Source: Candidatus Glomeribacter gigasporarum BEG34 | GTDB lineage: Bacteria > Pseudomonadota > Gammaproteobacteria > Burkholderiales > Burkholderiaceae | Length of the DNA: 39,646 bases | Direction of reading: 5' to 3' | NCBI RefSeq assembly: GCF_000227585.1 | Contig: NZ_CAFB01000046.1 | Coordinates: 1 to 39,646 of the forward strand | Part shown: positions 913 through 1,659 of the stretch, in pieces | How the letters are laid out: each line of letters begins with the position of its first letter | Position numbering within the stretch: the first letter of the stretch is position 1 | Notes under the pieces: model-generated | The model's input: the letters and a program-made list of their open reading frames with translations, nothing else | What the model was told of the DNA's origin: nothing | Databases searched by the model: none | Program-made: the position numbers and the translations under genes

Positions 913-1659
913 TTTCCAGAAGTCATTGCGCGCCGCGTCCAGTGCGCGAATCGCCGTTGCGATCTGATCTGCAATTCGTCCAATCGCGCGCCGATGTCCC
1001 TGACTGATTGAGTGCAAATCAGACGCGGTGGATTCACGCGCGAACGCGCGGCATGTGAGCGCTGCACGCGCATTCTTCCGGTTTTCATCCATGCGCCGCA
1101 CACTCCAGATGGCGTCTATTTCCGCCTGAGCGGCAGCCGGCGCATCGAGCCTGGATTCAAAGCGCCGCACATCGAACGTAATCCGGTATACCGCCCGGCT
1201 GAACGCATGAGGCATACGCGAAACATCGAGCGTATGCAGCCGGTCTGTGAGTTCTTCCGACAAAGCCGCGCGGATTTGATCGTCCAGCGGCGCCAGCCAG
1301 CGATGCTGCTCTTTGATCTTGGCCTCCCCGGAACGGTCAGTGATGACGAACTGGGCGCGCGCCACAATGGCTGGAATCTCGACGTCCGCAACCTCAATAT
1401 AGAACGGCGTTTGAGTTGCCAGAGCGCGCTGCGTATCCGCAGGCGTTTCTATACCATTCCGGCTGAGCGTATAAAAATGTGCGCGCGGTGAAGTCGCGCA
1501 GCCGTGAATGCTGAAGGCAAGCAGGGCGGCTGCAGGATATAGCCAAGCGACTTTAATTTGAGACAAGGAAGCAGCCGCGAAGACAGTATGAGTAATACGG
1601 CGAGCGGCGATGACGCCGTATCGAACTAAAGTCGCTTGGCTATACAACAGGCGTTTCAT
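856..1659 (-). CDS. pqiC: PqiC-type outer-membrane lipoprotein with repeat inserted in its signal peptide
   Basis: This is the lipoprotein partner of the PqiAB lipid transport system (ABC-type transport auxiliary lipoprotein/YmbA family) and acts at the inner face of the outer membrane. It starts ATGA-overlapped with the pqiB stop, which fixes the start. The N-terminus is odd: MKRLLY is followed by 35 residues encoded by an inverted-repeat element (1540-1642), and then [13 protein letters not shown], a hydrophobic stretch ending at the lipobox Cys. Removing the 105 bp leaves a normal signal peptide of about 19 residues. The mature part contains the family landmarks HFYTLS near the start and [12 protein letters not shown]. 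The last ~20 residues are antisense to the end of purB and look non-native. Function in this state is uncertain because signal-peptide processing may be altered. Confidence 0.85.
1540..1642. mobile_element. 103-bp MITE-like element inserted in frame in pqiC
   Basis: A near-palindromic element bounded by inverted repeats. TAGCCAAGCGACTTTA at the left is matched by TAAAGTCGCTTGGCTA at the right, and the match continues imperfectly for a few more bases. It is flanked by TA on both sides (1538-1539 and 1643-1644), as expected for a TA target duplication of IS630/Tc1-type transposition. Element plus duplication is 105 bp, exactly 35 codons, and contains no stop in the pqiC frame. Its centre resembles that of the repeat at 11810-11913. 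It encodes no transposase, so it would need one in trans. Confidence 0.8.

What the first reader, a model, noticed from the sequence alone, without database searches (positions are those of the whole stretch)
1538..1644. Transposable element domesticated in frame inside a lipoprotein signal peptide
The 103-bp inverted-repeat element plus its TA duplication adds exactly 35 codons between MKRLLY and [13 protein letters not shown] of PqiC. No stop is introduced and the lipobox Cys is retained, so the protein could still be exported with a 50-residue leader. It shows an element that tolerates coding insertion, as known for RPE elements in Rickettsia; here it is in a signal peptide.
Basis: partly seen in the sequence, partly recalled or inferred. 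Interest (0 to 1): 0.7.

Follow-up and report, generated by a model that had tools for sequence, protein, structure and literature searches.

The report
Correia-like mobile repeat inside a lipoprotein
A short hairpin-forming mobile repeat, related in its core to the Correia repeats of Neisseria, has inserted without breaking the reading frame into the signal peptide of a lipoprotein gene, and related copies sit in frame inside several housekeeping genes of the same bacterium.

Summary
Window 1538-1644 is a 103-bp inverted repeat plus a repeated TA. It adds 35 codons to pqiC (856-1659, minus strand) without a stop. The genome has 47 BLAST and 85 covariance-model matches.

It is a MITE with a Correia (CREE/NEMIS)-type core. 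The core hairpin and its flanks align with Neisseria elements and with elements of many other Burkholderiales. The terminal repeats are not Correia's: they differ between groups, while the two arms stay complementary. One genome carries several end types on one core.

Coding insertion is recurrent here: 15 of 20 element-spanning frames tested have Pfam matches, among them MutS, GlyS, NadC and CbiD. In a same-genus genome 7 of 11 aligned genes show a 33-35-residue empty site.

'Domesticated' is not shown; tolerated insertion fits best. In-frame fusion of the 107-bp Correia element, of Rickettsia RPEs, and of a Yersinia MITE in a signal peptide is already in print (PMC2229807, section and passages seen). 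New, as far as searched: the host, the exchangeable ends, the breadth of the core family.

The parts
1538..1644 (+). Correia-core MITE with 'A' type ends, including the TA on each side; the core reads on the + strand, antisense to pqiC
   Evidence: CM match 1541-1644, 76.6 bits
1538..1564 (+). left terminal inverted repeat with TA
   Evidence: 27 nt, 89% complementary
1618..1644 (-). right terminal inverted repeat with TA
1582..1601 (+). core hairpin GACAGTAT-GAGTA-ATACGGC
856..1659 (-). pqiC (ABC_trans_aux, PF03886) carrying the element in its leader
1498..1659 (-). extended predicted lipoprotein leader, 53 residues plus lipobox Cys54
   Evidence: signal peptide judged by inspection only
1656..3296 (-). 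pqiB (three MlaD stretches), overlapping the pqiC start by 4 bases
3293..4504 (-). pqiA
11812..11914 (+). second Correia-core element in the window, with different ('D' type) ends CAGGAGTGTTGCACAGCC, upstream of a ClpB-like gene
   Evidence: (I11)

Best explanation
The 103-bp unit is a non-autonomous transposable element (MITE) of a Correia-core family. It inserted at a TA in codon 6 of pqiC, by a TA-targeting transposase acting in trans. Because element plus target duplication is 105 bp and the frame used has no stop, PqiC stayed translatable from its own ATG, with 35 residues added to the n-region of its lipoprotein signal peptide; the hydrophobic stretch and lipobox Cys lie downstream of the insert. 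Such insertions persist in this genome where they stay in frame and fall in tolerant places (linkers, termini, leaders): a survival filter, not recruitment. Shown: inverted repeat, frame, copy number, in-frame copies in other conserved genes, empty sites for several of them in a same-genus genome, a core shared with Neisseria elements. Inferred: transposition in trans, export of the extended PqiC, near-neutrality of the insert.
For: Multi-copy with TA ends. 85 CM matches in the own genome (150 of 509 candidates scored) against 8 in the same-genus G405 (150 of 431 scored), and no insertion flank shared between these 8 and the 82 readable own copies at blastn E <= 1e-8; matches were to element sequence only. 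Core and core flanks align with N. gonorrhoeae and N. bergeri elements whose ends are TATAGTGGATTAA (published ends in PMC5039591). 15 of 20 spanning frames have Pfam matches. PDB alignments break at the element in NadC, GlyS and, 12 residues before it, MutS (element residues). 7 of 11 sister genes show a 33-35-residue gap at the element. dN/dS 0.14-0.29 for 9 host genes, pqiC 0.29. The pqiC ATG and its overlap with pqiB are intact.
Against: No transposase with matching ends was found: DDE_3 (IS630 type) has 0 matches in the own genome, and the single DDE_Tnp_1_2 match has none of the ends beside it; one 9-base TAGCCAAGC in that locus lies beyond another ORF, over 1 kb away. The assembly has 124 contigs, so IS copies may be missing. 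The TA duplication at pqiC is read from the filled site only. dN/dS averages both lineages and mostly predates the insertion. The pqiC insert peptide is unlike the others compared (GRAVY +0.60; of 13 others 12 are negative, one +0.04), so tolerance elsewhere does not directly carry over.
Confidence: 0.85

Rival explanations
1. Disabling insertion: the element lengthens the leader so much that PqiC is no longer exported or lipidated, and pqiC is a young pseudogene in a small symbiont-like genome that happens to keep its frame.
For: The 53-residue leader is long; the genome is small (1.73 Mb).
Against: No stop or frameshift in 267 codons, PF03886 matched over profile positions 5-161 of 161; dN/dS 0.29 over 208 codons (weak here, being mostly pre-insertion). 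In-frame copies in other conserved genes suggest tolerance.
Confidence: 0.2
2. Start-site shift: translation starts at the in-frame TTG inside the element, giving [23 protein letters not shown], a leader of ordinary length, so the element supplies a new n-region.
For: The TTG is in frame, and the resulting leader has a lysine and a hydrophobic stretch (by inspection).
Against: No ribosome-binding-like sequence before that TTG by inspection; the original ATG keeps GAGGATCAGCC upstream and overlaps the end of pqiB.
Confidence: 0.12
3. True domestication: the added residues or the mRNA hairpin have been recruited, for example to set pqiC level relative to pqiAB by RNase III processing.
For: RNase III action on Neisseria NEMIS transcripts is proposed in print (PMC2229807, section read); both strands here fold into a very stable hairpin.
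Against: The same-genus relative lacks it; the arms are still near-perfect, as expected of a recent insertion; equivalent copies sit in unrelated genes.
Confidence: 0.07
4. The repeats are primarily functional RNA hairpins (3'-end or terminator-like) rather than transposons, and the coding copies are accidents.
For: In loci L141-L253, 91 of 106 elements lie outside ORF proxies (control positions 443 of 2120); 37 of 92 flanking gene 3' ends and 20 of 85 gene 5' ends are within 20 nt, overlaps counted, with no control for distance. The arms covary strongly.
Against: TA ends, dispersed unrelated sites, 33-35-residue empty sites in genes, far more copies in one species of the genus than in the other.
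Confidence: 0.15

Closest known systems
Correia repeat enclosed elements / NEMIS of Neisseria, short (~107 bp) form
   Same: Net length 105 bp, TA at the ends, long hairpin, same type of core and the same 29-nt spacing from end to core motif; the 107-bp form is reported in frame in many open reading frames (PMC2229807).
   Different: Ends are TATAGCCAAGCGACTTTAA, not TATAG(T/C)GGATTAA; other host; this genome carries several different end types on the core.
Rickettsia palindromic elements (RPE)
   Same: Hairpin repeats of 105-146 bp found in frame in conserved protein genes (PMC2229807, passages).
   Different: No RPE sequence was compared here; different host lineage.
Yersinia YPAL/RU-2 MITE in YPO1552
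   Same: A MITE forming part of a predicted signal peptide (PMC2229807, passage).
   Different: There the fusion is proposed to make a new exported protein; here an existing lipoprotein leader is extended.

Membership tests
Correia/CREE (strict sense) | 26-bp Correia inverted repeat TATAG(T/C)GGATTAA... | tested here: not met
   Ends share only TATAG (against the sequences in PMC5039591, and PMC2911385)
Correia/CREE (strict sense) | characteristic core region | tested here: met
   A1 aligns the window with named Neisseria elements L142, L160, L196, L198. Columns inside the search pattern are conserved by selection; those outside it (C27, C41 and A76 invariant; G30, A44, C77, G81 at 90% or more) are independent support
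Correia/CREE (strict sense) | short form of 105 bp net with TA duplication | tested here: met
   103 + 2 bp in the filled site; the exact TA empty site at pqiC is not available
Correia/CREE (strict sense) | RNase III processing, promoters, IHF site of the long form | not testable with these tools
   no RNA or binding data
MITE | short, no transposase gene, inverted-repeat ends, multi-copy, TA at ends | tested here: met
MITE | autonomous partner with the same ends | tested here: inconclusive
   no DDE_3 match; the one DDE_Tnp_1_2 match lacks the ends; other transposase families not searched; fragmented assembly
RPE | in-frame presence in conserved protein genes | tested here: met
RPE | RPE sequence family | not tested
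   no RPE sequence was compared

The most novel reading that the evidence does not exclude
One conserved hairpin core, met in the papers I saw only as the Neisseria Correia repeat, is the constant part of a family of mobile elements spread through the Burkholderiales that changes its terminal repeats, perhaps to fit different transposases, while keeping the two arms matched; in a symbiont-like member it has expanded to over 80 core-bearing copies and repeatedly adds about 35 residues to housekeeping proteins.
Probability: 0.5. Interest if true: 0.75.

Novelty: new variant of a known kind. Interest (0 to 1): 0.6.

Why it matters
It gives Rickettsia-type protein-coding palindromes a further home, in a betaproteobacterial lineage where a same-genus genome provides empty sites, so the fate of in-frame insertions can be counted. 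It also suggests that the Correia repeat is one branch of a much wider element family in which the ends, not the core, are replaceable. That would let the question of what moves Correia-type elements be tested in other hosts.

Tried and rejected
Rfam at gathering thresholds: nothing in the window and no family at the element in 18 loci (it found two tRNAs, sX9 and Guanidine-II). IS630-type DDE_3 in the own genome: none. DDE_Tnp_1_2: one match (L274), without the element's ends beside it. Unpaired family-A ends (L254-L257) were nested or truncated elements, and in L257 probably a chance match inside a gene, not IS ends. B ends about 1 kb apart in L262 belong to two separate elements. Core strings in the literature gave nothing relevant in the listing (the Vogesella paper holds a 16S sequence, passages). 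'Correia' with 'betaproteobacteria' and 'miniature inverted-repeat': 0 papers. 'Correia' with 'Chromobacterium': of 15 listed, one Neisseria genome paper was looked into. Searches were seen as listings only, apart from PMC2229807.

Counts and dropped rows. 82 of 85 CM matches could be read with flanks (three lay outside fetched stretches). 36 of 82 have a frame open 60 nt or more on both sides, which alone proves little in a GC-rich genome. 31 frames of 150 or more codons, from 22 copies; 20 of these 31 went to Pfam and 5 of the 20 had no family. In L293, L053 and L037 the element lies at or near the start of the gene, and in L294 before the first domain, so these are weaker cases. sought broken genes: 31 of 82 copies were skipped because their ends did not fit the pattern, and some boundaries were off by a base (MutS); the crossing frames lost with the element were not tested for homology, so I give no in-frame to broken ratio. 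One search, with stricter ends, gave lengths for 40 of 82 copies. Of 16 genes, 12 went into the sister search; 11 were found (YhdP not): 7 with a 33-35-residue gap, PCuAC with a longer one, MacB, SLT and CcoG inconclusive. End types (A 20, B/other 45, D 17) rest on crude patterns. The structure counted was derived from the same alignment, and the four tip pairs are fixed by the search pattern.

Full report
What is there. Window 1538-1644 holds a 107-bp palindromic unit with TATAGCC...GGCTATA ends, i.e. 103 bp plus a repeated TA on each side. It lies inside pqiC (856-1659, minus strand) and adds 35 codons with no stop. The gene is PqiC by PF03886 (E 9.7e-29); pqiB (MlaD) and pqiA lie upstream, each pair overlapping by 4 bases. 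The lipobox Cys is residue 54. The signal-peptide reading is by inspection; no predictor was available.

Copies in the genome. The own genome (1.73 Mb, 124 contigs, unnamed) has 47 BLAST matches: 19 full length including the window copy, and by my count 17 that cover only the middle (within query 30-86), the rest being other partial or reversed matches. Reading them shows why: the same core sits between quite different terminal repeats. A strict core pattern has 54 matches, 0 when read backwards. A covariance model built from 43 elements finds 85 copies at E <= 0.001, with 150 of 509 candidates scored. The ends fall into at least three groups: TATAGCCAAGCG (A, as in pqiC), TAGAGCATTTTTCAG (B) and CAGGCGTTTCGCACAG (D), plus singletons. 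B-type ends, with up to 2 mismatches, occur 289 times, including elements of 71-75 bp without the hairpin tip and of 164-230 bp whose tip is replaced or enlarged by another repeat.

Relation to Correia elements. Named sources are Neisseria (N. gonorrhoeae, N. bergeri, N. sicca and others, several with Correia ends), Janthinobacterium, Methylophilus, Methylotenera, Cupriavidus, Undibacterium, Vogesella and other betaproteobacteria, with Regiella, Avibacterium, Pseudomonas and Stutzerimonas. Outside the order it occurs in 5 of 271 genomes of the class, no more than the backward control (17 by my count), so there is no excess there at this sensitivity. The published Correia ends (PMC5039591, part 1 of 4 of the text; PMC2911385, passages) have the same layout: 29 nt from TATAG to ...GGACAA or ...GTACGG there, TATAG to ...AGACAA or ...ATACGG here. 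The end sequence differs, so this is not a CREE in the strict sense. The core columns of A1 are partly conserved by selection, since the loci were found by that pattern; conservation outside it (ACAAGG, AACGCC) is the independent part.

Arms and structure. In A1, 22 of 28 pairs show changes on both sides. 87.1% of cells pair, against 62.4% in shuffles (0 of 500 as high) and at most 41.5% when slid. Matched arms of free sequence are expected both of terminal repeats that must agree and of a selected RNA hairpin; the test does not separate these, and the structure was derived from the same sequences.

Coding insertions. Of 82 readable copies, 22 give frames of 150 or more codons running through the element (31 frames). 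20 of the 31 frames were scanned with Pfam and 15 had matches: YhdP, MutS, GlyS (tRNA_synt_2f), a Fer4_5 protein, CbiD, a pseudouridine synthase, MacB, IspD, a BPD transporter subunit, NadC, an SLT protein, PqiC, an epimerase, PCuAC and GloB. Against solved structures NadC aligns as 22-199 and 232-330 (3gnn 23-200 and 199-297), MutS as 56-185 and 233-718, GlyS as 18-171 and 211-650; the elements are residues 199-234, 198-233 and 174-209. In the same-genus genome G405, 11 of 12 queried genes were found, and 7 of the 11 show a gap of 33-35 residues at the element: CbiD, NadC, MutS, GlyS, RluB, GloB and the epimerase. Nine host genes including pqiC have dN/dS 0.14-0.29 against that genome. G405 has 8 CM matches (150 of 431 candidates scored), none sharing flanks with the 82 own copies at the blastn threshold used; flanks in fast-changing intergenic DNA could be missed.

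Back to pqiC. The same-genus PqiC is 73-74% identical and lacks the 35 residues, as do two relatives of another genus, L113 and L114. The leaders are too diverged for an exact empty site. The insert here is the most hydrophobic of the 14 compared (GRAVY +0.60; the others -1.59 to +0.04), which may help it to be tolerated in a leader, or may be chance.

What is known. PMC2229807 (Correia section read, passages) states that the 107-bp Correia element has open frames fused to numerous other frames, that its net size is 105 bp, that RPEs occur in 19 reading frames, that a guanylate kinase with an RPE is active, and that a Yersinia MITE forms part of a predicted signal peptide. So the behaviour is known. 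Host, diversity of ends and breadth of the core family appear new: searches on Correia with other taxa or MITE terms listed no paper on Correia-type elements outside Neisseria, but most were seen as listings only (18 listed 30 of 36 papers), the MITE reviews in them were not read, and the library lacks many journals.

Elsewhere. In loci L141-L253, 91 of 106 elements lie outside ORF proxies, against 443 of 2120 control positions. The coding insertions may thus be a trait of this small genome, as in Rickettsia, but I did not run the same measure on the own genome.

Organism. Size and kin suggest a fungal endosymbiont such as Candidatus Glomeribacter; that is recalled, not tested.

Mended after re-reading the calls: full-length and partial match counts, the control outside the order, the ascertainment of core columns, which loci have names seen, and the wording on PDB breaks and flanks.

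Noticed in passing
window 11812-11914: A second Correia-core element, with D-type ends, lies upstream of a ClpB-like gene.
   Followed up: partly
window 7525-7685, also 15871-15896: Another inverted-repeat unit of about 161 bp with ends CTAAGAACCTGTTCACGATCT; one arm recurs at 15871 (I6, I13, D10).
   Followed up: no
window 11306-11320, 14571-14585, 15504-15518, 17983-17997, 18507-18521, 24067-24081, 30743-30757: Seven matches to the B-type end with up to 2 mismatches, against 0.05 expected: further elements or remnants.
   Followed up: partly
L258-L260, L262, L265-L269: In several elements the hairpin tip is replaced or enlarged by a second repeat (GATCGATGCGGGCGGAGCAGG...), once twice in a row.
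   Followed up: no
L322-L336 (same-genus genome G405): A peptide encoded upstream of the Fer4_5 gene, probably from element remnants, has 15 matches in G405, some in long open frames, suggesting further coding repeats there.
   Followed up: no
L146, L151, L182, L190, L201, L205 (Methylotenera, Methylophilus) and L249 (name not seen): The element sits beside what looks like the same gene end (...CTTCTTCGGC...) with different arms: possibly one old site whose arms evolved together.
   Followed up: no
L256: A core copy with GTGC/GCAC in place of GTAC/GTAC in the tip stem, a change on both sides.
   Followed up: no
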